A DNA stretch of 16,904 nt from Symbiobacteriaceae bacterium (GTDB lineage Bacteria; Bacillota_E; Symbiobacteriia; Symbiobacteriales; Symbiobacteriaceae). The DNA lies in assembly GCA_027356675.1 (NCBI GenBank), contig DAHVXO010000021.1:1-16904 (forward strand), written 5' to 3'. Shown here one piece after another: positions 3,422-15,803 of this stretch; within the stretch, counting starts at the first letter, position 1, and every line of letters starts with the position of its first letter. Below the pieces are notes generated by a model that worked only from the letters and a program-made list of their open reading frames with translations, did not search any database and was not told the DNA's origin. Made by a program: the position numbers and the translations under genes.

Positions 3422-4309
3422 TTACCCGGCCGCGACGGCCGGCATCTCCTCGACCCGCACGTCGCGCTCCACCAGCCGTCCGCCGCGCAGGACCTGGAGC
3501 CGAATCTCCCGGCCCACCTCCGTCCGGCGGATCTGGCGACGGAGTGCCGCCATGGAAGGCGTGGGCACCCCATCGGCCGCGACGATCATGTCGAATTCAT
3601 GCAATCCCCCCCGGTGCGATGGTCCACCCGGCTCCACACCGGCCACGACTACCCCCCGTTCGGGCAGGTCCAGCGCCCGAGCCATCACCGGGTCGAGCAC
3701 CTCGGTGGTGCCGGCGATTCCGACCCAGGGATGCTGGGCTCGACCGCCGCGGCGGAATTGTTCCACCACGGTCTCCACCTGCCATGAAGGGATGGCGAAG
3801 CCGATATTCTGCCCCTGGGCCAGTACCATGGTTGGAATGCCGACCAGATGACCGGCCAGGTCGACGAGGGCCCCGCCGCTGTTGCCGGGGTTGATGGCGG
3901 CATCGGTCTGAATCAGCCCGTCCAGGCCGCCGACCATCCGATCGATGGAACTGACCACACCCGTTGTGACGGTCCAACCAAACCCGTACGGATTGCCAAT
4001 AGCCATGACCAGTTTGCCGGGGAGGATGGACTCCTCTGCGGCCAGCGTGACCCGTGCCGCCACCGGTGCCTCAGTCTCGACCAGGGCCAGGTCGTACGCC
4101 CGATCAGCCGCGATCACTCGGCCGGAACGCGTCACACCGTCGGCAAAGGTCAGAGACGGGTTGGGATTGTTGCCGACCACGTGGGCGTTGGTGATGACGG
4201 AACGCTTGTCCAGCAGGACACCGGACCCCTGACCCCGGCCGCTCTTGACCTGAACGACTCCGGGACCGACCTCGGACGCCACTTTGACAAATGGTTCGCC
4301 AGTCAGCAT
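3422..4309 (-). CDS. HtrA/DegP-type trypsin-like serine protease with one PDZ domain, lacking a membrane anchor
   Basis: A protein-quality-control protease of the S1C family. With ATG 4309 as the start the product is 295 residues: protease domain about 5-190 with the catalytic triad His43 (NAHVVG), Asp73 (AYDLAL) and Ser144 (PGNSGG), then a PDZ domain about 195-285 (GVEPGGPSHRGGL). An in-frame GTG at 4318 is possible, but that GTG is the tail of the ribosome binding site TGAGGTG, which lies 6 bases before ATG 4309. Most HtrA proteins of Gram-positive bacteria carry an N-terminal membrane segment or signal peptide; here the protein starts directly with the protease domain, so it is probably cytoplasmic, unless an upstream start was missed. 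It is transcribed convergently with the ABC operon and appears to be monocistronic. Confidence 0.88.
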   Translation of the reverse strand: MLTGEPFVKVASEVGPGVVQVKSGRGQGSGVLLDKRSVITNAHVVGNNPNPSLTFADGVTRSGRVIAADRAYDLALVETEAPVAARVTLAAEESILPGKLVMAIGNPYGFGWTVTTGVVSSIDRMVGGLDGLIQTDAAINPGNSGGALVDLAGHLVGIPTMVLAQGQNIGFAIPSWQVETVVEQFRRGGRAQHPWVGIAGTTEVLDPVMARALDLPERGVVVAGVEPGGPSHRGGLHEFDMIVAADGVPTPSMAALRRQIRRTEVGREIRLQVLRGGRLVERDVRVEEMPAVAAG

Positions 4310-4324
4310 TGCCTGCACCTCACT

Positions 4325-4524: not shown

Positions 4525-5661
4525 CTATCTGCCCCAGGTCTCCAGAATCTCTTTGGCAACACGGGCCCAACCGTACCGCTTTTCGGCCAGAGCCCTGCCC
4601 CGGTCCCCCATCTCCTGGCGGCTCCGATCGCTCCGGAGGATGGTGGAGAGCGCCTCGGCAAAGGCGGAGGGGTCCTGTGGCTGCGCCACCACCAGCCCGT
4701 TGCCTGCCCCTGCGACCACCTCAGGATTGCCCCCGCGGGCCGTCGTGATGATCGGCAGTCCTGCCGCCATGGCTTCGTAGTGCACCCGTGCCAGAGGCTC
4801 TTCCCACTGCGAGGGGCACACAAAGACATCGCCGGCCCAGAACCACTTATGGACCTGGTCCGGGGCCACAAACCCCGTCGTCACCACCGGCAGGGGGGAG
4901 CGGGCAGCCAGGGCACGCACGTATGCGACGTAATCGCTGACCTTGTCCTCGCCGTACCACTTGCTCCCGACCAGGACCAGCGCCGCGTCGGGGTGACGCT
5001 TTGCCAGTTCCGGCATGGCCCGCACCAGAATGTCGGCGCCCTTTTTCGGGGAGAGCCGGCCCACGAACAGGATCACGTCGCGCCCCGACAGCTTGTGCTC
5101 CCGGTGCAGCGCGTCGCGGGTCTGCTGCGCCTCGGGTCCGGTCGAGGGGGTGAAGCGGTCCAGGTCCACGCCGGAATAGATGGTCCGGAGCTTGGTCTTG
5201 GCCTGGGGATAGCTCTTGGCGATCGTGCGTCCTACATAGTCGCTCACCGTGATGATGCGCTCCACCTGCTCGATTGCCGCAGCGGCCTCCTCCGGGCTAA
5301 TCTTCTGCGGACCAAACATATCGTTGTGCATGCTCAGGACAATGTGCGCCTGGGGTGCGGCCGCCCGCACGACCTGCACCAGGCGGGGGCGGTTAAAGAT
5401 GTGGATCACATCGAACGTGTGCCGCCCCAGGTAGTCTGCGATCGCGGCGCCGTAGATGTCAAGGTCTCCGCCAGGCATTCGGGCATGGCGGACCCGGCCA
5501 TCGGTCTCCCGTCCGGGAAGCTGCTCATCAGTGATACCCACGATCGTGAGGCCGCACCGGGCCGACAGCAACGGGGCAAGTGCCGCAATATACGTCTGGA
5601 TGGCCCCCCCCCGGACCGGCGGCACAGGTAGCTTCTCGGTGCAGATCATCAGTGCTTTCAC
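4525..5661 (-). CDS. cotSA: CotSA-like spore-coat glycosyltransferase (GT-B fold, family 4)
   Basis: A predicted GT4 retaining glycosyltransferase of 378 residues, close to the size of B. subtilis CotSA. The N-terminus TEKLPVPPVRGGAIQTY carries the glycine-rich acceptor-side loop. Then come the family stretches HNDMFGPQKISPEEA, IITVSDYVG and YSGVDLDRF, the C-terminal domain FVGRLSPKKGAD (about residue 199), and the EX7E donor-site motif Glu288/Glu296 within SQWEEPLARVHYEAMAAG. All are characteristic of CotSA relatives. GTG 5661 is chosen because GGGAGG lies about 10 bases upstream and because it shares GTGA with the stop of the cotS 3' segment, implying translational coupling. Whichever RNA carries this gene would normally come from the cotS promoter, now almost 9 kb away, so expression may depend on removal of the inserted element. 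The sugar donor is unknown. Confidence 0.87.
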   Translation of the reverse strand: MKALMICTEKLPVPPVRGGAIQTYIAALAPLLSARCGLTIVGITDEQLPGRETDGRVRHARMPGGDLDIYGAAIADYLGRHTFDVIHIFNRPRLVQVVRAAAPQAHIVLSMHNDMFGPQKISPEEAAAAIEQVERIITVSDYVGRTIAKSYPQAKTKLRTIYSGVDLDRFTPSTGPEAQQTRDALHREHKLSGRDVILFVGRLSPKKGADILVRAMPELAKRHPDAALVLVGSKWYGEDKVSDYVAYVRALAARSPLPVVTTGFVAPDQVHKWFWAGDVFVCPSQWEEPLARVHYEAMAAGLPIITTARGGNPEVVAGAGNGLVVAQPQDPSAFAEALSTILRSDRSRQEMGDRGRALAEKRYGWARVAKEILETWGR

Positions 5662-6054
5662 CTTACACTGCCCTCCCATTTCAGGCCCAATTCCTTGAGC
5701 GCCGCCCATTTGGTGGTGTCGGTCTCCACCAGGCGATGGAGAAGCGCATCAGTCTCGGCGTTTAGGAAGGTAGGGTCGAATACCATCTCTTTAAGGTGCT
5801 TATAGAACTCGTTGGGGAGGGCCATGTCGATCAGCAGCACCTGGTACAGGTCCGACTCGATCCGGCAGGCCTTGTCATAGGCATCGATCATGCCTTTCAT
5901 GAACGCAGGGTCCCATACGCCCAGGTCGTCCATGGTGCTGGTGATCAGCTTACGTAGGTCGCGGATCGCCAGGTCGTAAGCCACACCGTCCAGGTCGATA
6001 ATCCAGACGCCCCCCGGCCCCATCTGGCCGTTGGACCAGCCGTAATCCTGATGA
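5658..6054 (-). CDS. cotS: cotS-like spore-coat kinase gene, 3' segment (split by the inserted element)
   Basis: This is the C-terminal part of a CotS-family protein (a kinase-fold coat protein related to aminoglycoside phosphotransferases). It has no start of its own: reading from the 10-bp repeat at 6045-6054 it continues the catalytic loop as YGWSNGQ, then the metal-binding WIIDLDG and the family signature YDLAIRDLRKLI. The remaining helices end at residue 402 of the reconstructed protein. The open frame runs on to about 6299, but that extension overlaps the recombinase gene on the other strand and lacks CotS features. The conserved residues and frame are intact, so this is not a decaying pseudogene. 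The 5' half is at 14944-15765. Stop and downstream GTG overlap as GTGA. Confidence 0.88.
6045..6054 (+). repeat. attL core: left copy of the 10-bp direct repeat
   Basis: ATCCTGATGA. On the minus strand it reads TCATCAGGAT and encodes His-Gln-Asp of the cotS catalytic loop. To its left is cotS sequence; to its right is element sequence leading to the recombinase start 58 bp away. The actual crossover dinucleotide within the 10 bp cannot be fixed from one sequence. Confidence 0.85.
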
Positions 6055-6071
6055 ATGACGGCAAGGTACAA

Positions 6072-6098
6072 CCTGCGCGAGCGTATGCTGTGCGCAGG
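6072..6098 (+). promoter_or_regulatory. Inverted repeat in the recombinase leader, overlapping its ribosome binding site
   Basis: CCTGCGC (6072-6078) and GCGCAGG (6092-6098) form a perfect 7-bp inverted repeat around 13 bases. Its right arm runs into the purine-rich ribosome binding site AGGGGGGTG (6096-6104) of the recombinase. As RNA it would partly mask that site; as DNA it could bind a repressor or the recombinase. It lies 18 bp from the att core. Confidence 0.5.
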
Positions 6099-6112
6099 GG
6101 GGTGCCTGTGCG

Positions 6113-7645
6113 GTGTTGAGCCCGTCCGAAGCGGCGCCCGATAAGGTGGCCGTCTACATTCGCTGGTCCACGGACGATCAGGGTGAAGGTACGACCCTGG
6201 CGGTCCAGGCCGAGCGATGCCAGCATTTCCTGGCGTCGCAGGGGTGGGTCTACCGGCCTGATCTCCTTTACGTGGATGAGGGATGGAGTGGGGGTACACT
6301 CGACCGACCGGCCCTGCGCCGCCTGCGAGACGATGTGGACCGCGGGTTGGTCCACTGCGTCGTGGTCTATAAGATCGACCGGCTGTCGCGCTCGGTGGTC
6401 GATATCGTGCAACTCGTCCTGAGAGAGTGGGATGGCCGTTGCTTCGTGAAGTCGACCACGGAGGATGTCAACACGCTGACGCCGGCGGGGAAGGTGTTCT
6501 TCTACATCCTGGTCTCATTCGCCGAGTATGAACGAAGCGTGATCCGAGAACGCACCATGGGTGGGAAGATTAAGCGGGCCGAGCAAGGACTGAACCCCGG
6601 GTTCCGGCCACCTTATGGTCTCACGCGGGGTCCCTCCCCTGGGACCTTTGCGGTGGTGGAGCACGAGGCAAACGTCGTTCGTCGCCTGTTCGACCTGTAT
6701 CGCCTGGGATATGGAGCGCATCAGATCGCCCGAATGCTCGATACTGCGCAACCGCTGCACCGGGGGCGGGTGTGGGCCCCCCTCACAGTGCGGCGCATGT
6801 TGGCTAATCCCGCGTATGCCGGTATCCTGGCCTACGGGCGGACGGTCCGGACGGGACGAAAGCCGGCGGTGCAGCGCCTTGCGACACCCCGCTACTGCGA
6901 GGTCCCGGGGGCCCTGCCTCCCATCGTTGCCGAAGGCCTGTGGAAGGAAGTGCAGGAGCGGCTGCAGGCGGGGAGGCGCCGCCGAAGTCCCCCGAGGGCG
7001 GAGGCTGCCCCGGCGGCCACCGGTGCGTTCCTGTTGGCCGGTCTCGCCGCGTGCCGCTGCGGCGCCCCCGTGCACGGCAAACGGGTGGGACGATATCGTT
7101 ATTACTATTGCTCCGCCCGCAAACGGCGAGGCCAGACCGCTTGTGCTGCCGGTCATGTGCAGGCCGAGCCTGCGGAGGCCGCATTGGAGCGGCAGGTGCG
7201 AGACGTATTGTCCGCTGCTTTGGACGGGGCGATGTGGCAGAAGGCCATGTGCGCTGCCCTGGAGCGAGAGACCCGGGAGGCGACCGCAGGTCTGGCTCAG
7301 GCGCGGTCCGAGCGGGAGGCATTGACCGAGCGCACACGCCGCCTGGAACGCGACTACCGCAGCGGCGGCCTGCCAGCAGATCTCTATACCTCAGAACTGG
7401 CGGCGCTTGAGCAGGCCAGCCAGGGCTTGGAGCACCGGATGACCGCTCTTGCGGTACGGCTGGAGCAGTGTTCCGCAGTCCTGCCCGAAATCGCCGGCAG
7501 TCCTGCCCCAGGTGAGGCCTGGGACGAGCTGGCGGGAGTTGAGCGCCAGGAACTTCTGAACAAGCTGGCGGTGTCGGTGGAGGTGTTCCGGCAGGCTGGC
7601 ACCCCCGACCCACCGGAGATGCGGGTCCAGTGGGTCAGACTCTAA
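6113..7645 (+). CDS. Large serine recombinase (site-specific integrase/excisionase)
   Basis: This enzyme is predicted to recombine the two att sites by double-strand cleavage through a serine-DNA linkage. The 510-residue protein has a resolvase N-terminal domain (about 11-155) with YIRWS, catalytic Ser19 and Arg17, plus KIDRLSRS (87-94). A recombinase domain follows (about 160-285, GFRPPYGL and the NPAYAG motif), then a zinc ribbon with Cys314, Cys316, Cys333 and Cys344. Next come a coiled-coil stretch (about 375-455) and a C-terminal tail. All are standard for large serine integrases such as SpoIVCA or SprA. GTG 6113 has AGGGGGGTG about 8 bases upstream; a TTG follows directly at 6116. The gene starts 58 bp inside the left end of the element. 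It is opposite in direction to the cotS fragments and the nitrate operon. Confidence 0.93.
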   Translation: MLSPSEAAPDKVAVYIRWSTDDQGEGTTLAVQAERCQHFLASQGWVYRPDLLYVDEGWSGGTLDRPALRRLRDDVDRGLVHCVVVYKIDRLSRSVVDIVQLVLREWDGRCFVKSTTEDVNTLTPAGKVFFYILVSFAEYERSVIRERTMGGKIKRAEQGLNPGFRPPYGLTRGPSPGTFAVVEHEANVVRRLFDLYRLGYGAHQIARMLDTAQPLHRGRVWAPLTVRRMLANPAYAGILAYGRTVRTGRKPAVQRLATPRYCEVPGALPPIVAEGLWKEVQERLQAGRRRRSPPRAEAAPAATGAFLLAGLAACRCGAPVHGKRVGRYRYYYCSARKRRGQTACAAGHVQAEPAEAALERQVRDVLSAALDGAMWQKAMCAALERETREATAGLAQARSEREALTERTRRLERDYRSGGLPADLYTSELAALEQASQGLEHRMTALAVRLEQCSAVLPEIAGSPAPGEAWDELAGVERQELLNKLAVSVEVFRQAGTPDPPEMRVQWVRL

Positions 7646-7676
7646 TGGAGAACCCAAGTGGCCGGAGGTGTTGCCG

Positions 7677-7853
7677 ATGCAGGTTCAGGTGGTGGAAGAC
7701 TGGGTGGATGATCATGTGCGGGCTGAAGGGGCCAGAGCCCATCTGGCAGCGATTGCGCTGCACCTCGCCTCTCGCCGGTTGACCACCCAGCTTGAGCGCA
7801 ATCGAAAAGGCGCAGGCACCCCGCAAGGAGATGGCTACGCCCGGCGGAACTAG
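7677..7853 (+). CDS. Small 58-residue protein, candidate recombination directionality factor
   Basis: ATG 7677 is preceded by GGAGGTG (7664-7670) with ideal 6-base spacing and lies 31 bases after the recombinase stop, so the two are probably cotranscribed. The protein is acidic at its N-terminus (VEDWVDDHVRAEG), has an alanine-rich helix-forming middle (AHLAAIALHLASRRL) and a basic tail rich in Arg, Lys and Gly. No known family was recognised. Small proteins encoded beside or within serine-integrase elements often control direction; SprB of SP-beta, also about this size, is required for excision during sporulation. The function here is inference from size and place, since directionality factors share little sequence. 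It ends 10 bp from the stop of the convergent gene. Confidence 0.6.
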   Translation: MQVQVVEDWVDDHVRAEGARAHLAAIALHLASRRLTTQLERNRKGAGTPQGDGYARRN

Positions 7854-7862
7854 GGTCACTGT

Positions 7863-8540
7863 TCATGTAGGGGAGCCTGAGGTGCGATTAGTCGGCAGAG
7901 GGGGGTCAGCGGCATCCGTCTTGGTCTGCGGAGCCTTCTCCTTGTCTTCAGCCGCCTTCTTCTGTTCCGTCTTGTGCTGCTTCCTCGACTTCTTCTCTGG
8001 CAACCGCGCTTTCTCAATTACCTGCGTCAGGTCGATCACCATTGCCGGACCTACGGGGCTCTCGTCCCCAGCATACTCAACCGCGAAGCGCATCTTGTAA
8101 CCGGGCTCTGCAAGCAAGTTGTGGGGCTGCAGCACGCTCCGGACATTCACCCTGGCTGCACCCTTTGAGCGTCCCACTTTGAGTCCACGCTTGTCCTCGT
8201 TGGCCGCCGGGTACACAAAGAGCAGCCTGTCGGGAAGAACCAGTGCTGTGCGCACCTTGTCCGGCCGGACCCGCAAACCACCCCGTAGCTCATTGACCCG
8301 CCCCATTCGGTTGTCAGCAAGGGCTGAAAACTGCAGGATTGCCGGGTCTTGCAGCCAGCATTCCGAGGGGTATTGGTTCCTGTTGACCAATTCGACATCT
8401 TCGCCATCAAAGTAAATGTGCTTGCCGTCTTGACCGCCGTTTGCGTCCCCCGTGCCCTTAGGCTGTGAGGATGCCGCTACCGCCCGGATCGCTGAGTCCT
8501 TGTCGTCTCCCTGTACCTTGCTTGAGGCCTTCTTGAGCAT
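7863..8540 (-). CDS. Hypothetical charged protein carried by the element
   Basis: I do not recognise this 225-residue protein. ATG 8540 is well supported: GGAG and AGGTGA precede it closely, and a good promoter lies at 8591-8619. There is no signal peptide or membrane segment. Residues 1-40 are polar and probably disordered (GTGDANGGQDG). Residues 43-175 look folded, with beta-rich stretches such as RTALVLPDRLLFVYP and MRFAVEYAGDESPVG. The last 50 residues are a Lys/Glu-rich low-complexity tail (EKKSRKQHKTEQKKAAEDKE) that could bind nucleic acid. Base composition looks less GC-rich than neighbouring genes, a hint of separate origin. It has its own promoter, is convergent with the recombinase and is separated from the nitrate operon by the repeat block. 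Function unknown. Confidence 0.75.
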   Translation of the reverse strand: MLKKASSKVQGDDKDSAIRAVAASSQPKGTGDANGGQDGKHIYFDGEDVELVNRNQYPSECWLQDPAILQFSALADNRMGRVNELRGGLRVRPDKVRTALVLPDRLLFVYPAANEDKRGLKVGRSKGAARVNVRSVLQPHNLLAEPGYKMRFAVEYAGDESPVGPAMVIDLTQVIEKARLPEKKSRKQHKTEQKKAAEDKEKAPQTKTDAADPPLPTNRTSGSPT

Positions 8541-8566
8541 TCACCTTTCTCCTTTCAACTCGATGT

Positions 8567-8578
8567 GGACGATCGTCC
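8567..8578. promoter_or_regulatory. 12-bp perfect palindrome just downstream of the 8540 gene promoter (candidate operator)
   Basis: GGACGATCGTCC is a perfect palindrome. It falls about 6-17 bases after the predicted transcription start near 8584, and about 27 bases before the ATG at 8540. That is a typical position for a dimeric repressor, but no regulator is identified. Confidence 0.45.
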
Positions 8579-8590
8579 CTCCTAAGGGAA

Positions 8591-8619
8591 ATATTACCAT
8601 ACCTATTTACTGGTTGCAA
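8591..8619 (-). promoter_or_regulatory. Vegetative-type promoter of the hypothetical gene ending at 7863
   Basis: On the minus strand, TTGCAA (8619-8614) is followed after exactly 17 bases by TAATAT (8596-8591). TGG directly before the -10 hexamer gives an extended -10 element. Each hexamer matches the sigma-A consensus at 4 of 6 positions. The surrounding AT-rich stretch stands out in this GC-rich window. Confidence 0.65.
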
Positions 8620-8646
8620 CTCCTGTTTTTAGAGATTTGAGCTCGG

Positions 8647-8905
8647 CCGATGCGCGGCGCGCCTCCGCGGACAGGCGGCCTGCCCGCGGCATAAACGCGG
8701 TGCAAAGGCGTCCGGGCGCGGCGCGTCTCCGCGGACAGGCGCCCTGCTCGCGGCGTAAACGCGGTACGAAGGCGGCAGGAGCGCGGTGCGCCTCCGCGGA
8801 AGGGCGCCCCACCCGCAACGTACATGCCGTGCGAAGGCGGCCGATGCGCGATGCGCCTCCGCGAAAGGGCGCCCTGCCCGCGGCGGTCATGCGCCACGAA
8901 GGCGG
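8647..8905. repeat. Four imperfect tandem repeats of 64-65 bp, very GC-rich
   Basis: The motif CTCCGCGG (CTCCGCGA in the last copy) starts at 8663, 8727, 8792 and 8857, giving periods of 64, 65 and 65 bp. Each unit also carries GGGCGCC- or CAGGCGGC-type blocks, CCCGCGGC-like blocks and ends in CGAAGGCGG or similar. The period is not a multiple of three, so reading frames through the block are not maintained by the repeat, and I regard it as non-coding. It occupies the gap between the unknown gene and the nitrate operon, 8641-8990, where no other gene is visible. Confidence 0.75.
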
Positions 8906-8935
8906 TCGGTGTCTAATGCACGGGCGGCCATGGCG

Positions 8936-8974
8936 CGAGGGAAGCTCGTCCTCCTTCGCGGGCGAGCTTCCTCG
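8936..8974 (-). terminator. Hairpin after the nitrate operon, probable transcription end
   Basis: CGAGGGAAGCTCG (8936-8948) pairs with CGAGCTTCCTCG (8963-8974) with one bulged base, around a 14-base loop. It lies 17-55 bases after the stop of the last nitrate-operon gene. No T-run follows on the minus strand, so it may instead protect the RNA 3' end. Confidence 0.5.
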
Positions 8975-8990
8975 CTGCCGAACTCGCCCC

Positions 8991-9224
8991 CTACTGAGGC
9001 GTCCGGTCAATCTTGAACACATAGCGGACCAGGTACACATTCAGCGCCAGACACGCCAGCGAGGCCAGGAAGGCCGGCAGGGCAATGCCGTGGTTGCCCC
9101 CCAGGTACGCATCCAAACTCGCAGTAAGCAGCCAGATCTGCAGGATCAAGACCAGCAGGATACATGCCAGGATCAGGTCGATCACCGTCGTCTGCTGACG
9201 GCGCCAGCCACCGTGGGTGTTCAT
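8991..9224 (-). CDS. Small two-helix membrane protein, last gene of the nitrate operon
   Basis: A 77-residue protein with two clear transmembrane helices (about residues 14-36 and 46-68) joined by a short loop DAYLGGNHG; the ends are basic (GGWRRQQ, KIDRTPQ). The ATG overlaps the Rieske stop by 4 bases (ATGA), so it is coupled to and probably made with that subunit. It carries no heme or cysteine ligands beyond a single His and isolated Cys residues. A membrane-anchoring or assembly subunit for the reductase complex is a reasonable guess; no named family is claimed. Confidence 0.75.
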   Translation of the reverse strand: MNTHGGWRRQQTTVIDLILACILLVLILQIWLLTASLDAYLGGNHGIALPAFLASLACLALNVYLVRYVFKIDRTPQ

Positions 9225-9751
9225 CCCAGGGTCACCCCCTTGGCGTAGATCAAGTCGCCGGCAATCTCAAGCTCGATCCGGGGCAGCGGACGGGGCGGCG
9301 GACCGGCCTTGGGCTCCCCCGTGACCGGGTCAAAGAACCCATAATGGCACGGGCAGACAATCTCCTTGCGCGCCTTGTCATAGTGCACGGCGCACGACAG
9401 GTGCGTGCACTTCTGGGTGTAGGCCACCCACTGCTGCTCACCCAGCCGGATCAGGATACACGGGTCTACGGCGGTGGGGTAGCGGAAGAGCTTGACCCCA
9501 CCCACCGAAACTTCGGCAACAGTCGCGACTGCCTCGCGCGCCGCCACGGGTGACCGCTCAAAGAGGCTCTTGCCCCAGAGCCAGGCGTTGCCCACGGTCA
9601 GCCCCATCGACCCTAACACCAGGAACTTCGTGAACTCTCGCCGCGCCACGTAATGATCCTCGGACCAACGAACCGGAAAGTCCTTGCGCCACTGCGGCTC
9701 CGATTCCGGCCCGGCAGCCCCGGTCTGCGTGCGGTCCTGCTCAGTCGTCAT
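9221..9751 (-). CDS. Rieske [2Fe-2S] protein with Tat-type membrane anchor, nitrate reductase electron-transfer subunit
   Basis: A 176-residue Rieske protein. A twin-arginine motif RREFTKF (residues 38-44) precedes a hydrophobic segment (about 44-60), the usual export and anchor signal of Rieske proteins, which are translocated folded. The cluster ligands are in CTHLSC (Cys115, His117) and CPCHYGFF (Cys133, His136), with Cys120 and Cys135 able to form the stabilising disulfide. The second loop has CPCHYG where many relatives have CPCHGS. The start ATG lies 11 bases inside the upstream ferredoxin gene and its end overlaps the next gene by 4. Haloarchaeal nar operons also encode a Rieske protein beside a membrane cytochrome, so a role between quinol and the reductase is plausible, with the cluster outside the membrane. 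Confidence 0.9.
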
Positions 9752-10352
9752 CGTCTAGCACCCCCAGCATCATGGCTGCGTCAGCCCGTTCGGCCACCAG
9801 GTCGGCCACGTCTACATCCAGCCGTTCGGCCCCCGCTGGTAAAATGATGTGGACCCGGGTCTTGACCACCTGTCCCCCGAACTTGAACTCATTTGCAGGC
9901 GACCCCTGCCGGCCCGCGAGGACCTTATCTTGCGGCCCAAAGCTAAGCGCACCGGAAGGGCAGACCGTGGCACACATGGGCCGCTTGCCCACCGACGTAC
10001 GGTCGTAGCACATATCGCACTTCATCATCTGGTCCAGTTCGCCCATGTACTTGGGCACGCCGAACGGGCAGGAGAGCACGCAGTTGGAGCAGCCGATGCA
10101 CCGGGGCTTCAGCGCGCTCTGCACGATGCCGTCCGGGGTCATCTTGATCGCGTCCGCAGGGCAGACCTGGGCACAGATTGGATCCTCGCAGTGCATGCAG
10201 ATCTGGGGCGCCGTCTCCGTGGTCCAGGCCCGGTTGATGAACTCCAGATGAATCATCGAGGTTCCCCGGTGCGTGTCGCACTCGGCACAGGCCTGTACGC
10301 AGGACTGGCAGCCAATGCAGCGGCTGGGGTCCAGGAAGAACTCCATCTCCAC
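9741..10352 (-). CDS. Four-cluster [4Fe-4S] ferredoxin subunit (NrfC/DmsB/HycB type)
   Basis: The electron-transfer subunit that passes electrons to the molybdenum subunit. Its 203 residues hold 16 cysteines in four groups: [11 protein letters not shown] (12-22), CMHC....C...CP (52-64), [12 protein letters not shown] (85-95) and CDMC (112-115) with Cys127 and Cys131. This is the pattern for four [4Fe-4S] clusters. There is no signal peptide. The GTG start at 10352 shares one base with the upstream TAG; an internal ATG at 10346 is an alternative. AAGGGTGA lies just upstream. The 3' end overlaps the Rieske gene by 11 bases. The C-terminal 60 residues lack cysteines and end in an acidic DDDD-type tail. 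Confidence 0.9.
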
Positions 10353-12529
10353 TACTGACTCACCCTTTCCACGCGCACGGCGCTGATTTTAAATTCGGGA
10401 ATGCGCGAGACGGGATCGAGTGCGCGGTTGGTCAGCAGGTTGGCGCTCAGGCGCCCAGGCCAGTGGTAAGGGATGAAGACGGTATCCGGCCGGATGGTCC
10501 GGACCACCATCGCCTTCAATGCCAACTGGCCCCGGCGGGAGGTGACCCGCACAAGGTCGCCATCCTTGACCCCGAGCCGTTCCGCCAGCCGGGGATGCAT
10601 CTCCACCTTGGGTTCGGGGTACTGGTTCACCAACGCTGCGATGCGCCGTGTCTGGGTGCCGCTCAGATACTGGGAGATCACCCTCCCGGTCGTCAGGAAT
10701 AGTGGATACTCCAGATCCGGTACCTCCGCCGGCGGTCGGTACTCAATGGCATGGAACTTCGCCCGTCCATCAGGGTGAGAGAACTTCAGGTCCGCGAAGA
10801 GGCGGGGCGTACCCGGATGGTCTTCGGTCGGGCAGGGCCAGCAGACGCCCATCTCCTTATCGATGCGCTCATAAGTGATGCCGCCATAATCAGCCGTTCC
10901 GCCGTGCGAAGCCACCCGCAGTTCGTTGAAGATCTGCTCTGAGCCGGTGTAGTTGAAATACTCACCCCGCCCCAGGCGGCGTGCCAGTTCGAGGATAATC
11001 GCCGTGTCCGTGCGGGCCTCCCCAGGCGGCGTCACGGCTGCCCGGAGATGAATGACCCTTCCCTCAACGTTCGTGGCGGTGCCTTCCTCCTCCTCGTGCA
11101 GCGAACCCGGCAGAATCACGTCCGCGTACTGCGCAGTCTCGGACATGAAGAAGTCGATCGCGACAAAGAAATCCAGCTTCTCGATAGCACGCTTGGTGAA
11201 CGTCGCATCCGGCAGCGAAACCACCGGGTTGAAGCAAATCGAGATCAGGCCCCGCACCTCGCTGCGTTCCATGGCCTCTACCATCTCTTCGGCGCTCAAA
11301 CCCTTGTGCGGAATCTCCGCTTCGGGCACGCCCCAGACCGAGGCAATGAACGCCCGATGCTCGGGGTTCTCGATATCCCGGTTCCCTGGTAGCTGATCAC
11401 ACTTGTGGCCGTGCTCCCGGCCACCCTGGCCATTGCCCTGTCCGGTGATGGTGCCATACCCGGCCCCGCGCCTCCCGATGCGTCCCGTCGCCAATATGAG
11501 GTTGATGCAGCTTAGCACGTTCTCGACACCCTTGCTCTGGTGCTCGAGCCCGCGAGCGTGCAGCAGCATGCTCAGGCCGCCCTCGGCCTTTCCCCAAAGT
11601 TTCGCCGCCTGCTCAATCAGTTCAGGCTTGACCCCGCAGATGGCGCCAACATACTCCGGCGTATACTTGCGCACCGTCTCCCGTAGCTCCGCCCATCCAT
11701 TTGTGTGCCCTTCGATGAACGCCTCATCCAGATAACCGCGCTCCACGCACACATGGAGGATGCCGTCCATAAGGGCGCTGTCGCTCCCGGGCTTGAGCGG
11801 AATGTAGAGATCGGCGTTGCGGGCGATTGGCGTGTACCGCGGATCGATAACGATCAGCTTGCCGCCGGCCTCCTTCATCCGCCAGATGTACTCGACCGTG
11901 ATGGGGGCGCACTCGGCCGTATTGGTACCGATGAGAATTAGGCACTTGGTATGAGCGATATCCTCCCAGGGATTGGCCGCACGGTCGATGCCGAAGGCCT
12001 TCTTGTTGCCGGCGCCGGCGCTGACCATGCAGAGGCGTCCGTTATAGTCCAGGTTCTTGGTGCGCAAGGCCAGGCGGGCAAACTTGCCGATCAGGTAGCT
12101 CTTCTCGTTGCTCAGTGAGACCCCGGAGAGCATGCCAAAGGCATCCGGCCCATGCTCCGTCTGGATCTGCCGGATGCGCTGCACAATCAGCTCCATCGCC
12201 TCGTCCCACGTGGCGCGCCGAAAGCCGCTGTCTGTGCGGATCAGCGGGTAGAGCAAGCGATCGGGATGGTTGTCTTGCATATAGCGCTTTACGCCCTTTG
12301 GGCAGAGCCGCCCCTGGTTGAACGGGAACTCCTCCCAGGGCTCGAACCCGATTACCCGGTTTTCCTTGACCTTCAGCTGGATCCCGCACTGCATGCTGCA
12401 GAAGCAGCAGTGGGTTTTGACCAGGGTATCCGGCTCCACGTCACCACGCCAACCCAGAACCGGGGTGGCGTTCAGGTGCGGACCAAACTGCTCGATGAAC
12501 TGCTCCTCAGAGAGCGGTAATTTTGCCAT
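10352..12529 (-). CDS. Molybdopterin oxidoreductase, NasC/NarB-type nitrate reductase catalytic subunit
   Basis: Predicted to reduce nitrate to nitrite at a Mo-bis-MGD centre. The 725-residue protein has an N-terminal [4Fe-4S] motif Cys41-x2-Cys44-x3-Cys48...Cys76 followed by Lys78 (CPKG). The likely Mo ligand is Cys167 in [12 protein letters not shown], the NapA/NasA pattern and unlike the Asp of NarG. The stretch [21 protein letters not shown] (about 365) resembles assimilatory-type nitrate reductases of Gram-positives. The dinucleotide-binding C-terminal domain (about 610-725) starts [20 protein letters not shown]. No Tat signal is present, so the subunit is probably cytoplasmic. AGGAGGG lies upstream of ATG 12529. 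Related formate dehydrogenases have similar folds; Cys instead of Sec/Cys-His context and the narK neighbour favour nitrate. Confidence 0.85.
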
Positions 12530-12554
12530 GTCCGTGTCCCTCCTGGTGATCTCT

Positions 12555-13580
12555 TCAGCGTCCCTGGAGCCTTAGCTGGCTCAGGGCGATGCTCTTGCGG
12601 CGGCAGGCAGGGCAGATATCCTGGTAGTGCCCATCATCGGCCAGGCGGTAATCCACTCCGAGCGCCGCCTGCACCTGCTTTAGATCCGCGACATGCATGG
12701 CTGAGGCGTACTCATCGCCGCACCGGGCGCAACGGGCCTGCTCACCGGCCTTGCCATCCCGCTTGTACAATGCGACACCCATCTGCGCAGGGCGCTGGAA
12801 CAGGTGAAAGAACTTGCCGAAGGGCAGGTAGAGCAGGAATATAATCACCGACACCGCATGGGAGATCGCAATAAAACTGAACGAGTAACCCTTTAGGTAG
12901 GCGGCGCTCACGGTCAACATGAGTCCCGTCATGGCGATGGCAAAGAGCAGAATCAGAGGCACGCCGTCATTCGCCAGCTGCTGTACCGACATGGCGCCCT
13001 TGTCCTTCAGACGGCGTGCGAAAGCAAACCCAACCCCGACGATCACAACCACCGCACTGATATCGAGGGCATGGAAAAAGAGCCAGGCGACAATCCCATC
13101 CACGGCGAAGCGGAAGGTGGGAAAGCCAAAGACGAAGGCCCGATAGAACATCTGGTCCCCCGCACTCTCAAAGTGGATCCACCCGAAGACCAGCGGGAAA
13201 GTCACAGCAAATGCCAAGTTAACGCCCCAGAAAATCAGGCTGTGCATCATCCAGCGCAGGTGACTGCGCTTGTCGATGAAGCCCTGCCGCACGAAGTGAT
13301 TGAAGAAATCCCCGGCCAGGAAGCGGATATTGCGCAGGCGGTGTCCCTTCTGCCAGAACAGCTCACGGCCTCGCCGCCAGTACAGGCTTGTCGGGGGCCG
13401 CTGGAGCCAGATGGCGTACCGGTACGTAATGCCGAAGAGCGCGAAGATGCTGGCGAAGGTGTAGGCCACCAGCGCCGCGTCGAAGTTCTGCAGGTTGCGC
13501 GAACCGATGATGACCAGGATCGAGAGACCACCAGCGACCATAACCCCTGCCCAAATCGCCCGTTTGACCTCGGACTTCAC
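12555..13580 (-). CDS. NarI/HdrE-like membrane cytochrome b-type subunit with C-terminal CxxC pair
   Basis: A 341-residue membrane protein with about six hydrophobic segments (8-28, 35-55, 108-132, 158-183, 207-230, 235-255). Several membrane-proximal histidines (His107, His113, His170, His241, His259) could bind b-type hemes, and GKFFHLFQRP resembles the heme-proximal segment of NarI/TmcC-like quinol oxidoreductase subunits. After the last helix a cytoplasmic tail carries CARC (284-287) and CPAC (323-326), which could hold zinc or an iron centre. It probably takes electrons from menaquinol for the reductase. Its start overlaps the narK stop by 4 bases (ATGA); 25 bases separate it from the molybdenum subunit. 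The assignment to a heme protein is by family resemblance only. Confidence 0.75.
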   Translation of the reverse strand: MKSEVKRAIWAGVMVAGGLSILVIIGSRNLQNFDAALVAYTFASIFALFGITYRYAIWLQRPPTSLYWRRGRELFWQKGHRLRNIRFLAGDFFNHFVRQGFIDKRSHLRWMMHSLIFWGVNLAFAVTFPLVFGWIHFESAGDQMFYRAFVFGFPTFRFAVDGIVAWLFFHALDISAVVVIVGVGFAFARRLKDKGAMSVQQLANDGVPLILLFAIAMTGLMLTVSAAYLKGYSFSFIAISHAVSVIIFLLYLPFGKFFHLFQRPAQMGVALYKRDGKAGEQARCARCGDEYASAMHVADLKQVQAALGVDYRLADDGHYQDICPACRRKSIALSQLRLQGR

Positions 13581-14773
13581 TGGGTAGCCCCCTTTCCGGC
13601 TCCTGTGGGGGCACGACCGATGCTACCCATGACATGGATCAGGAGGCAGAGTGCGGCGAAGGTCGCCAGGAAGCCAAATCCCAGGGCATAGCTGCCGGTC
13701 GACTGCTTGACGGCGCCCATCACCAGGGGTGGAAAGAAGCCACCCAGGCCCCCGGCGGCACCGACCACGCCGGTCACCGTGCCAGTCTCTTTCGGATAGA
13801 CCTCGGCCACCAGCTTAAAGACGGCTCCGTTGCCAATTCCAAAGCAGACGGCCAGGGCGAGGAAGGCCGCCGTCAGGACCGTCATGTCCGGATCAGTGGC
13901 AAGCACCCCGGCAAGTGCCGGAATGATGACGAAGATCGTTGTCAGCACTCGGCGTCCGCCGAAGCGGTCGGCCAACCAACCACCCAGAGGCCGTGCCAGG
14001 GTCGCCACCAGCACGAAGCCGGCCGTCCGGTTCCCCGCATCGATACGGTCCAGGGCGAAGCGGTCCACCAGGAATTTGGGTAGGTACGCACCCAGGGCCA
14101 CGAAGCCGCCGAAACTCAGGAAGTAGTAGAGGCTCAGCAGCCAGGCGCCCCAGCCCTTGCCAAGCACGCTGAGGCGATCCGCGATCGACCGCTGCGGACC
14201 GGCGGGCCGGGGGGCATCCCGCCCCGTCAGCCAGTAAATCAGCGCCATGATGGCCGCAACGGCACCCAACACTTGGAATGGCCGGATCCAACCGCCACCC
14301 GCCGACAAGGCTGGGGCCAGCCGTGCCGAGACCGCCGTGCCAATGTTCCCCATCCCAAAGATGCCCAGGACAAGTCCCTGTTCTTTGGGGCTAAACCAAC
14401 GGGAGACCGTGGGCACCCCGATGGCGAAAGAGGAACCCGCCGTACCCAGAAGCAGTCCCATGAGGACCAGGATCGCAAAACTGGACGCAAACATGAACGA
14501 GAAAGCGGTCGCAGCTGAGAACAGTAGGAGCAGAGTGAACATCAGCCTGCCGCCGTACCGGTCCGTCAGGAGCCCCATGGGAATCCGCAGGACGGAGCCA
14601 AGCAGCACCGGCACGGCAATCAGCGTGCTGACGGCGACGTCCGAGAGGTGGAACTCCTTCTGTAGGGATGGGGCAAGCGGCGAAATCAGAGACCAGACTG
14701 CGAAGGCGACTGCGAAGGCGACGGTGGCGAGGATAAGGTTGTAGTTGGCCGGTCCTCTCTGTTCCCGAGTCAT
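13577..14773 (-). CDS. narK: Nitrate/nitrite transporter of the major facilitator family (NarK)
   Basis: First gene of the operon; imports nitrate and/or exports nitrite. It is 398 residues long with 12 predicted helices. The MFS loop motifs are GLLTDRYGGR (about 68-77) and GGWLADRFGGRR (about 260-271), and the nitrate signature is visible in SSFAIGVPTVSRWF and GIFGMGNIGTA (about 140-150). The glycine-rich GAAGGLGGFFPP is the second signature. ATG 14773 has GGGGAGG 5 bases upstream. Its 5' leader carries a hairpin (14796-14816) and the promoter region an Fnr-type box. The gene is coupled to the next by an ATGA overlap. Confidence 0.92.
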   Translation of the reverse strand: MTREQRGPANYNLILATVAFAVAFAVWSLISPLAPSLQKEFHLSDVAVSTLIAVPVLLGSVLRIPMGLLTDRYGGRLMFTLLLLFSAATAFSFMFASSFAILVLMGLLLGTAGSSFAIGVPTVSRWFSPKEQGLVLGIFGMGNIGTAVSARLAPALSAGGGWIRPFQVLGAVAAIMALIYWLTGRDAPRPAGPQRSIADRLSVLGKGWGAWLLSLYYFLSFGGFVALGAYLPKFLVDRFALDRIDAGNRTAGFVLVATLARPLGGWLADRFGGRRVLTTIFVIIPALAGVLATDPDMTVLTAAFLALAVCFGIGNGAVFKLVAEVYPKETGTVTGVVGAAGGLGGFFPPLVMGAVKQSTGSYALGFGFLATFAALCLLIHVMGSIGRAPTGAGKGATQ

Positions 14774-14795
14774 ATTGACCTCCCCTTCAGTGGGT

Positions 14796-14816
14796 GCCCG
14801 GGGGCGACACCCGGAC
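14796..14816 (-). promoter_or_regulatory. Hairpin at the extreme 5' end of the predicted nitrate-operon mRNA
   Basis: On the minus strand GTCCGGG (14816-14810) pairs with CCCGGGC (14802-14796), including one G-U pair, around a 7-base loop. It begins one base after the predicted transcription start near 14817 and ends about 15 bases before the ribosome binding site. It could stabilise the transcript; no ligand-binding motif is seen. Confidence 0.45.
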
Positions 14817-14823
14817 TTATTCC

Positions 14824-14829
14824 ATTATC
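14824..14829 (-). promoter_or_regulatory. -10 element of the nitrate operon
   Basis: GATAAT on the minus strand matches TATAAT at five of six bases. It predicts a start near 14817, which places the Fnr-type box centre at -41.5. No clear -35 hexamer is needed at a class II activator site. Confidence 0.65.
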
Positions 14830-14850
14830 CAATCTGGTGGCGTAGTGGAA

Positions 14851-14866
14851 TGTGACTGTGATCACA
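14851..14866. promoter_or_regulatory. Fnr/Crp-family operator upstream of the nitrate operon
   Basis: TGTGACTGTGATCACA is a perfect TGTGA-N6-TCACA site, the consensus for Fnr of B. subtilis (and for Crp of E. coli). Centred at 14858.5, it lies 41.5 bp before the predicted start, the classic activating distance. Oxygen-controlled induction of nitrate respiration fits the downstream genes. The regulator itself is not in the window. Confidence 0.8.
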
Positions 14867-14910
14867 AGGCCAACGGCATCTTTGTGCAACGCATCTCCGC
14901 AGCCGGGTCG

Positions 14911-15765
14911 TCAAGCGTTTACCGTTTCCCTCCCGGATCGTTCATCCTGATGAGCGATCCCCCAATGTGACTCTCCGCGGGCGATTAGCTTCCCGTAGGG
15001 CGATCGTTGTAGCATTTCCACCGCCTGCCGTGCCTGCGCCTCGAACCTGCTGACCGCCGACCGCAACGTACTCGCCGCCGGCATCTCGGCATAGGCCTCG
15101 CCCAGGATGCGAAACCAGCCGATCTTGGTTAGGGTCTTCTCGTAGGTCTTGGGCCAGCGGTAAAGCCGGGAGGCCCGCTGTGCCCCCTGGGGCGGCACAT
15201 ACCCATGGGAGTGCTTGTGGACCTCGCCAAGCCCGAAGCAGAGTGTGGTCGCCCCCTCCAGGCCCGTCTTGGACGCAGGCCTTAGCGATTCGATCCACTC
15301 CGTGACGATCCAGACGTGCCCGTCCGCGTCTACATAGGGCAGCCCGTCCTTGGATTGAATGAGGGCGGGGACCCGCGCCCCGCGTCCGTGCAGATACTCC
15401 TGCGCTCCGATGCTAAAGAGGCTACGCGCGAGCGGCCGGTGCAGCAGCTTGAGACTGCGGGGACCGCGATTCGTCTCGATGCGCCAGATTGCACCGCCCT
15501 TATCGGGTTTGGTGGTGATCAACTGCATCGCCGATACCTTCATGTCGTAGCGGGCCATCACCCGCTGCGCCATCGCCTCGGTCTCAGGCGGCACCGCCAG
15601 GGTCTCATCGGGACCGCCGCCGGTTTCCTCCCCCTCGGCCGCGGAGTCGCCCCCTTCAGGACTCGGCTGCTCACCGATCGTCCGCACCTCGATTCCCGGC
15701 GAGACGAGCGGGGGTGACCCCGGAGGCGCCCAGACGAGAAACGGTTCAGGCTCCTTTTTCACCAC
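14911..15765 (-). CDS. cotS: cotS-like spore-coat kinase gene, 5' segment (split by the inserted element)
   Basis: N-terminal part of a CotS-family kinase-fold protein. GTG 15765 is preferred: GGAGGAGGG (15781-15773) precedes it by 6 bases, whereas ATG 15789 has no such site and falls near the likely transcription start. After a Pro/Glu/Gly-rich extension of about 60 residues come the family stretches IWRIETNRGPRSLKLL, LFSIGAQEYL, HKHSHGYVPP and RASRLYRWPKTYEK, then SHWGIAHQD, the catalytic loop (HQD at 272-274). Directly after it CotS homology ends: element DNA adds ERSGRETVNA and a stop. In this state only a protein lacking the metal-binding and C-terminal parts can be made. Joined at the 10-bp repeat to 5658-6054, it gives 402 residues with Asp274, Asn279 and Asp291 in the expected order. 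Confidence 0.88.
   Translation of the reverse strand: MVKKEPEPFLVWAPPGSPPLVSPGIEVRTIGEQPSPEGGDSAAEGEETGGGPDETLAVPPETEAMAQRVMARYDMKVSAMQLITTKPDKGGAIWRIETNRGPRSLKLLHRPLARSLFSIGAQEYLHGRGARVPALIQSKDGLPYVDADGHVWIVTEWIESLRPASKTGLEGATTLCFGLGEVHKHSHGYVPPQGAQRASRLYRWPKTYEKTLTKIGWFRILGEAYAEMPAASTLRSAVSRFEAQARQAVEMLQRSPYGKLIARGESHWGIAHQDERSGRETVNA
14944..14953 (+). repeat. attR core: right copy of the 10-bp direct repeat
   Basis: ATCCTGATGA, identical to 6045-6054 and in the same orientation. To its right is cotS 5' sequence; to its left is element sequence. On the minus strand it encodes the HQD triplet and is the exact point where CotS homology stops. The 14774-14910 stretch just inside holds the nitrate-operon promoter, and no further gene. 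Confidence 0.85.
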
Positions 15766-15795: not shown

Positions 15796-15803
15796 AGTTT
15801 ATG
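15796..15803 (-). promoter_or_regulatory. Possible mother-cell (sigma-E/K-like) -10 element for cotS
   Basis: CATAAACT on the minus strand resembles the CATAnnnT core of sigma-E and sigma-K -10 elements. It predicts a start near 15789, giving a short leader before the ribosome binding site at 15781-15773. No good matching -35 element was found, so the sigma assignment is weak. Confidence 0.3.

What the first reader, a model, noticed from the sequence alone, without database searches (positions are those of the whole stretch)
5658..15765. A spore-coat kinase gene (cotS-like) is split by an 8.9-kb serine-recombinase element and can be rebuilt exactly in frame
Seen: minus-strand 15765-14954, one copy of the 10-bp repeat, and 6044-5658 add up to 403 codons with one stop. 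The junction restores IAHQD-YGWSNGQ, followed by IDLDG and the RDLRKLI signature, all CotS-family hallmarks. Neither half has decayed. Known: skin in sigK and SP-beta in spsM are excised in the Bacillus mother cell by serine recombinases. Inferred: this is another developmentally excised element, with cotS as the switch gene. I know of no description of this particular arrangement, but could not search.
Basis: partly seen in the sequence, partly recalled or inferred. Interest (0 to 1): 0.95.

Follow-up and report, generated by a model that had tools for sequence, protein, structure and literature searches.

The report
Spore-coat kinase gene split by recombinase element
A spore-coat kinase-family gene is cut in two, at the stretch encoding its predicted catalytic motif, by an 8.9-kb DNA element that carries a serine recombinase gene and likely nitrate-reduction genes; the element is predicted to be cut out precisely during spore formation, which would restore the gene, and the same cut is seen in 20 related protein fragments from other sequences.

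Summary
A CotS-family gene is split by an 8,899-bp element; dropping the element with one copy of the 10-bp repeat restores 403 in-frame codons. The joined protein passes the CotS cut-off (252 against 172.7 bits); neither half does.

The arrangement recurs. Of 50 CotS C-terminal fragments found in public proteins, 20 lose CotS homology exactly at the same HQ|D site. Five N-terminal fragments, besides a 99% copy of the window's, end there too. Ten relatives of the recombinase have the contig length and a data source of such fragments (0.27 coincidences expected), all inside one 33-member clade. Across lineages only the Gln of His-Gln-Asp is always shared by both junctions, which places the crossover in that codon.

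Best reading: a non-phage cotS-intervening element, recurrent in what is probably Symbiobacteriaceae, that works like skin, SP-beta or gin and is predicted to be excised in the mother cell. Excision, its timing and a directionality factor are untested.

The parts
14954..15765 (-). N-terminal part of the CotS-family gene, up to the core repeat; as it stands the frame runs on into the element and stops at 14911
5658..6044 (-). C-terminal part of the CotS-family gene, from the core repeat to the stop
14944..14953 (.). core repeat copy at the N-part end (predicted attL)
6045..6054 (.). core repeat copy at the C-part end (predicted attR)
6045..14943 (.). the intervening element, 8,899 bp with one repeat copy
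6113..7645 (+). large serine recombinase, 510 aa: Resolvase, Recombinase and zinc-ribbon domains
7863..8540 (-). 225-aa ORF without family match; possible but unproven directionality factor
8991..9224 (-). DUF6755 protein, 77 aa, end of the cargo operon
9221..9751 (-). Rieske iron-sulfur protein
9741..10352 (-). 4Fe-4S electron-transfer protein (DmsB-like)
10352..12529 (-). molybdopterin oxidoreductase nearest to assimilatory nitrate reductase NasC, below that model's cut-off
   Evidence: 859.1 bits against 1100
12555..13580 (-). membrane protein with weak match to QmoC
13577..14773 (-). MFS transporter nearest to the NarK nitrate/nitrite family, below that model's cut-off
   Evidence: 237.9 bits against 311.7
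4525..5709 (-). family-4 glycosyltransferase (cotSA-like) overlapping the end of the C part; a relative follows cotS on the same strand in 36 of 38 intact loci
15796..15803 (-). CATAAACT, 38 nt before GTG 15765, like the -10 box of sigma-E/sigma-K promoters as recalled; no good -35

Best explanation
An 8,899-bp element with a serine recombinase gene interrupts a CotS-family spore-coat kinase gene at its predicted catalytic His-Gln-Asp motif, and it is predicted to be excised precisely in the sporulating mother cell, which would restore the 403-codon gene and rejoin it to the glycosyltransferase gene behind it. Shown: the split, the in-frame repair on joining, the recombinase gene, the same junction in other sequences, and contig-length evidence that ties it to one recombinase clade. 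Inferred: the element's recombinase exchanges strands within the Gln codon of the two repeats, probably helped by a directionality factor that I could not identify; this happens in the mother cell, whose DNA is not inherited, so that the element and its nitrate-reductase-like cargo persist through the spore. Without excision the N part lacks the residues that match Asp239, Asn244 and the DxD motif of YtaA, so an active kinase could not be made from it.
For: Exact in-frame join and abutting family matches. Alignment to YtaA (2q83) puts the junction in HQDYG; passages of PMC2860764 name H237, Q238, D239, N244 and D257 of YtaA. Same junction in 20 of 50 C-side fragments; 13 have native sequence there, 3 are too short, 14 lack the site, the window's own C part among them. 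N side: 6 of 12 proteins end at HQ, one of them a 99% copy of the window's. Crossover confined to the Gln codon: 6 of the 20 C fragments lack the His, 2 of the 6 N fragments lack the Asp. Ten of 120 listed recombinases have the contig length of a CotS fragment, 0.27 expected; 10 of the nearest 32 against 0 of the other 88; with the window all 11 lie in one clade of 33 (SH-aLRT 100). At columns invariant in 38 intact genes, split parts keep 317 of 341 (N), 750 of 780 (C) and 234 of 240 (twice split) cells.
Against: No excised molecule, expression or timing was seen. No directionality factor was identified, and no sporulation promoter before the recombinase. Same-contig linkage rests on equal contig lengths and shared sources; I could not read the contigs. 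Of the nine C fragments so linked, six show the junction, P0142 is too short and P0131 and P0162 start past it. Co-inheritance of recombinase and cotS is weak (r 0.32, p 0.025, 10 pairs), and linked rows are not more clustered on the tree by change count than shuffled labels (10 against 10.5). Symmetry of predicted attP and attB is not better than shuffles (0.11 and 0.12). Databases favour open frames, so decayed halves would be under-counted. The window departs at 5 of 57 and 3 of 44 invariant columns. No genome is held, so a second, intact copy cannot be excluded.
Confidence: 0.72

Rival explanations
1. The element is a serine-integrase genomic island that uses the conserved active-site sequence of cotS as its attachment site and simply inactivates the gene; the halves are leftovers that have not yet decayed.
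For: The cargo looks like a metabolic island; integrases that target conserved coding sites are known (passages of PMC10083194); element ends differ between close cotS genes, as P0121 shows, so elements come and go; excision was not observed.
Against: Both halves keep 93-96% of cells at invariant columns in diverged carriers, and recombinases of linked carriers differ by 28-47%, so the state looks old. The His or Asp that each end has lost is kept on the other side, so every join would restore HQD.
Confidence: 0.16
2. The element leaves and returns as a reversible switch that is not tied to sporulation, for example as an active mobile island or a phase-variation device.
For: Serine recombinases can do this; in C. 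botulinum the yin element was seen integrated and excised in one culture, depending on growth phase (abstract of PMC10747680). P0124, an uninterrupted site, is very like the split P0126 and P0147.
Against: The gene is a coat gene, useful only in the mother cell by family knowledge, so vegetative switching would have no visible product. Published sporulation-gene elements are timed to sporulation (PMC5595907 introduction and discussion).
Confidence: 0.1
3. No excision is needed: the two parts are made as separate polypeptides that work together.
For: The C part has an internal Met (MGPGG) that gene callers use as a start, as in P0122.
Against: That Met is also found in fragments with native sequence at the site, so it was not acquired for this; the cut lies inside the catalytic loop.
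Confidence: 0.02

Closest known systems
gin element in gerE of Bacillus cereus ATCC10987 (PMC5595907: abstract, introduction and discussion read)
   Same: Element without phage genes; serine recombinase; short shared core (9 bp there, 10 bp here); splits a mother-cell gene that is restored in frame by excision
   Different: gin is 28.6 kb with three recombinase genes and sits in the regulator gene gerE; here 8.9 kb, one recombinase, a coat kinase gene, nitrate-reductase-like cargo, a recurrent clade. Excision was shown for gin, not here
SP-beta in spsM of Bacillus subtilis (PMC4191935: passages read)
   Same: Serine recombinase excision rebuilds a spore-envelope gene in the mother cell
   Different: SP-beta is a prophage with a known 58-aa factor SprB; no phage genes beside the integrase were found here
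skin in sigK, vfbin in spoVFB, vrin in spoVR (named in PMC4191935 passages and PMC10747680 introduction)
   Same: Elements inside mother-cell sporulation genes
   Different: Prophage-like, in other genes and in Bacillus, Geobacillus or Clostridioides
yin in yabG of Clostridium botulinum (PMC10747680: abstract and introduction read)
   Same: Element inside a gene for coat assembly, precise restoration
   Different: Prophage-like and reported from one strain; the present kind recurs in many sequences
fdxN element and XisF of heterocyst-forming cyanobacteria (recalled; NCBIfam model NF041201)
   Same: Programmed excision restores a split gene in a terminal cell, with a serine recombinase
   Different: The recombinase scores 72.9 bits against the XisF cut-off of 375; other lineage and gene

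Membership tests
Sporulation gene-intervening elements (skin, SP-beta, vfbin, vrin, gin, yin) | Lies inside the coding region of a sporulation gene and leaves it in frame on removal | tested here: met
Sporulation gene-intervening elements (skin, SP-beta, vfbin, vrin, gin, yin) | Encodes a serine recombinase | tested here: met
Sporulation gene-intervening elements (skin, SP-beta, vfbin, vrin, gin, yin) | Short core repeat at both ends | tested here: met
   10 bp
Sporulation gene-intervening elements (skin, SP-beta, vfbin, vrin, gin, yin) | Recombination directionality factor | tested here: inconclusive
   no family match or usable model for the 225-aa ORF; smaller ORFs not tested
Sporulation gene-intervening elements (skin, SP-beta, vfbin, vrin, gin, yin) | Excised during sporulation in the mother cell | not testable with these tools
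   needs cells or reads
Prophage-type intervening elements | Phage genes in the element | tested here: not met
   of four element ORFs scanned against PHROGs only the integrase matched; the other cargo ORFs match redox and transport families
CotS family (TIGR02906) | Score above the curated cut-off | tested here: met
   joined protein 252.2 against 172.7 bits; halves 140.5 and 96.9
CotI equivalog (NF053880) | Score above the curated cut-off | tested here: not met
   211.3 against 550 bits
Large serine recombinases | Resolvase, Recombinase and zinc-ribbon domains in order | tested here: met
SCC recombinase CcrB, or XisF | Score above the curated cut-off | tested here: not met
   136 against 900, and 72.9 against 375 bits
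NasC nitrate reductase (NF047855) | Score above the curated cut-off | tested here: not met
   859.1 against 1100 bits; a relative, substrate unproven

The most novel reading that the evidence does not exclude
A clade of serine recombinases has made the catalytic codon of a spore-coat kinase a standing programmed-rearrangement site across a bacterial family, using non-phage elements that can carry metabolic operons; in some members a second element cuts the same gene again, so that cotS lies in three pieces and needs two excisions to be rebuilt.
Probability: 0.5. Interest if true: 0.87.

Novelty: new variant of a known kind. Interest (0 to 1): 0.76.

Why it matters
The published sporulation-gene elements that I saw are described strain by strain, mostly as prophages in Bacillus and Clostridium. 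Here one coat gene appears to be split repeatedly, at the same catalytic codon, in connection with one recombinase clade, in what is probably a different lineage. If excision is confirmed, programmed rearrangement would be a lasting trait of a group of spore formers, such elements would be a safe place for metabolic genes, and the carriers would form a natural series of related recombinases and attachment sites, with a possible three-piece gene as the extreme case.

Tried and rejected
Reaching genomes of the window's own lineage failed: no genome is held, and the one genome-contig scan gave Bacilli and some MAGs. Samples of the phylum of those genomes searched with the recombinase (249, 119 and 9 genomes, partly the same ones) held no close relative, the best being 5.2e-46 at 35% identity. 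A sample of 398 was searched with the glycosyltransferase, and only eight of its genomes again with the recombinase (matches in 3 of 8, best 1.6e-15). Viral contigs gave nothing close (none; three at 22-28% identity; none). In phage records 645 have a match, none over 80% of the query, the best listed being 31.7% identity over 71%.

A phage origin of the element was considered and not supported. No tRNA and no Rfam family was found in the window. The model of the 225-aa ORF has mean pLDDT 38.8 and says nothing. Strict co-inheritance of recombinase and cotS was tested and is weak. The att symmetry test supports the AG centre for attL only: 14 of 22, a value reached at 0.065% of window positions, one of 36 site-and-centre combinations looked at.
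Full report
Observation. The + strand word ATCCTGATGA occurs at 6045 and 14944. Dropping the 8,899 bp from one copy to the other joins minus-strand 15765-14954, one repeat copy and 6044-5658 into 403 codons with one terminal stop. TIGR02906 (CotS) matches the N half up to model position 194 and the C half from 194 on; the joined protein passes the family cut-off and the halves do not. Among solved structures only YtaA, 2q83, matches at E up to 0.001 (1e-48), with HQDYG on HQDYG. Passages of the paper on that structure (PMC2860764) name H237, Q238 and D239 of YtaA in the active site or catalytic loop, link D239 to catalysis, name N244 and D257 as further motif residues, and say that no member had been assayed and that some are pseudokinases. 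The cut thus falls between the residues that match H237 and D239.

Intact relatives. One scan returned 38 loci with a relative at 55-67% identity, among them Aneurinibacillus, Brevibacillus, Paenibacillus, Anoxybacillus and some MAGs. Each is one stretch of 337-352 codons across the site; two hold one stop. In 36 of 38 a relative of the window's glycosyltransferase follows on the same strand, in several of them directly (none found in L026 and L038). In the window this gene overlaps the end of the C part, so the element also cuts it off from the start of cotS.

The element. A large serine recombinase with its three usual domains begins 58 bp beyond the repeat at the C-part end. On the other strand lie a NarK-like transporter, a membrane protein, a NasC-like molybdopterin enzyme, a 4Fe-4S protein, a Rieske protein and a DUF6755 protein. 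Transporter and enzyme are below their curated cut-offs, so nitrate as the substrate is likely, not shown. Of four element ORFs scanned against phage families only the integrase matched.

Recurrence. It gave 50 fragments. 20 have unrelated sequence directly before Q-D-Y-G, 13 have native CotS sequence there, 3 are too short to judge and 14 lack the site, among them the window's own C part P0122. A search with the N part gave 12 proteins. In 6 of them CotS sequence ends right after H-Q; P0171 is 99% identical to the window and so not independent.

Where the crossover lies. Six of the 20 C fragments have S, Y, C or F where the repaired protein has His (P0126, P0127, P0130, P0140, P0147, P0151). 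Two of the six N fragments have Gly where it has Asp (P0175, P0177). Only the Gln codon is common to all, and each missing residue is supplied by the other side. In the window the arm symmetry peaks at the AG of that CAG in attL (14 of 22), attP (11) and attB (11), not in attR; only attL stands out from background. Exchange at this dinucleotide is inference.

Link to a recombinase clade. The recombinase search found 222 relatives and listed 120. Of the nine C fragments, six show the junction, one is too short and two start past it. All ten are among the nearest 32; none of the other 88 matches (Fisher p 5.6e-7, with the cut chosen after seeing the list; jittered lengths give 0.27 coincidences on average and at most 3 in 2,000 trials). 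In a tree of the window and 80 of the 120, the ten and the window lie in one clade of 33 rows, SH-aLRT 100; within it they are scattered. Short contigs cannot show cotS, so the other 22 rows are undecided.

Host. Names that sources give to the nearest 32 are Symbiobacteriaceae (P0005, P0015, P0025, P0030), Bacillota or Firmicutes; of the ten linked ones P0007 and P0018 bear a name, Bacillota and Firmicutes. I take the window to be from Symbiobacteriaceae or near it; no call proves this.

Constraint. At 57 N and 44 C columns that do not vary in the 38 intact genes, six split N parts keep 317 of 341 cells, 18 split C parts 750 of 780 and six twice-split pieces 234 of 240 up to the second break; the window itself departs at 5 and 3. 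The 24 C fragments counted are the 20 with P0137, P0142, P0131 and P0143. P0171 and P0121 are near kin of the window. Databases favour open frames, so this supports selection but does not prove it.

Turnover. Recombinase and cotS distances correlate weakly (r 0.32, p 0.025, 10 pairs). The three closest pairs by cotS (5-12% apart) have recombinases 28-39% apart. P0121 has a C part about 90% identical to the window's and a different element end. Either elements are exchanged at a fixed site or the recombinases evolve much faster than cotS.

Second site. Nine of the 50 fragments lose CotS sequence straight after FYK(H/N)VK: P0136, P0140, P0148, P0153, P0156, P0160 and P0165 continue with two residues and V-(T/S)-K, P0162 with RNVSIS, and P0147 ends one residue later, which could also be a contig end. 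The family model is matched only to 288, 285 and 281 of 314 in P0153, P0136 and P0162. Six of the nine also show the first break. The simplest reading is a second element in the same gene, but I could not see the DNA, and the last piece was not searched for.

Mechanism. In published cases a serine recombinase, with a directionality factor where that was studied, excises the element during sporulation (PMC5595907 introduction and discussion; PMC4191935 passages). The anatomy here fits that scheme. A CATAAACT box lies 38 nt before GTG 15765 and resembles the -10 of sigma-E or sigma-K promoters as I recall them, without a good -35; the window holds two more CATANNNT words on this strand and two on the other, fewer than composition predicts. 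Timing is therefore inferred.

In print. Nine searches of the held library, on cotS with recombinases or intervening elements, sporulation gene rearrangements, Symbiobacterium with sporulation and recombinase, CotS and CotI kinases, and Symbiobacteriaceae with nitrate and spores, listed papers on skin, SP-beta, gin and yin but no title or abstract on a split cotS. Preprints and most subscription papers are not held.

Noticed in passing
P0136, P0140, P0147, P0148, P0153, P0156, P0160, P0162, P0165: Second break in cotS after FYK(H/N)VK; six of the nine also show the first break, so cotS may lie in three pieces.
   Followed up: partly
P0124: Fragment with both sites uninterrupted that is very like the split P0126 and P0147: an empty site or an excised form.
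   Followed up: partly
P0121 against window 5658-6110: cotS C part about 90% identical to the window's but with a different element end, which suggests exchange of elements at a fixed site.
   Followed up: partly
window 8991-14773, - strand: Nitrate-reductase-like operon with Rieske and DUF6755 proteins as cargo of an element inside a sporulation gene.
   Followed up: partly
window 8644-8905: Tandem array of a 65-nt GC-rich unit, about 3.7 copies at 80% match, between the cargo operon and the 225-aa ORF.
   Followed up: no
window 7863-8540, - strand: 225-aa ORF without match in Pfam, NCBIfam or PHROGs, converging with the recombinase gene; single-sequence structure model is of no use.
   Followed up: partly
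window 6080-6087, - strand: CATACGCT word inside the element, about 40 nt before the C part and pointing towards it; it might drive the glycosyltransferase gene before excision.
   Followed up: no
window 3422-4318, - strand: Trypsin-like serine protease gene beyond the glycosyltransferase gene that matches the PHROGs families phrog_11383 and phrog_9683.
   Followed up: no
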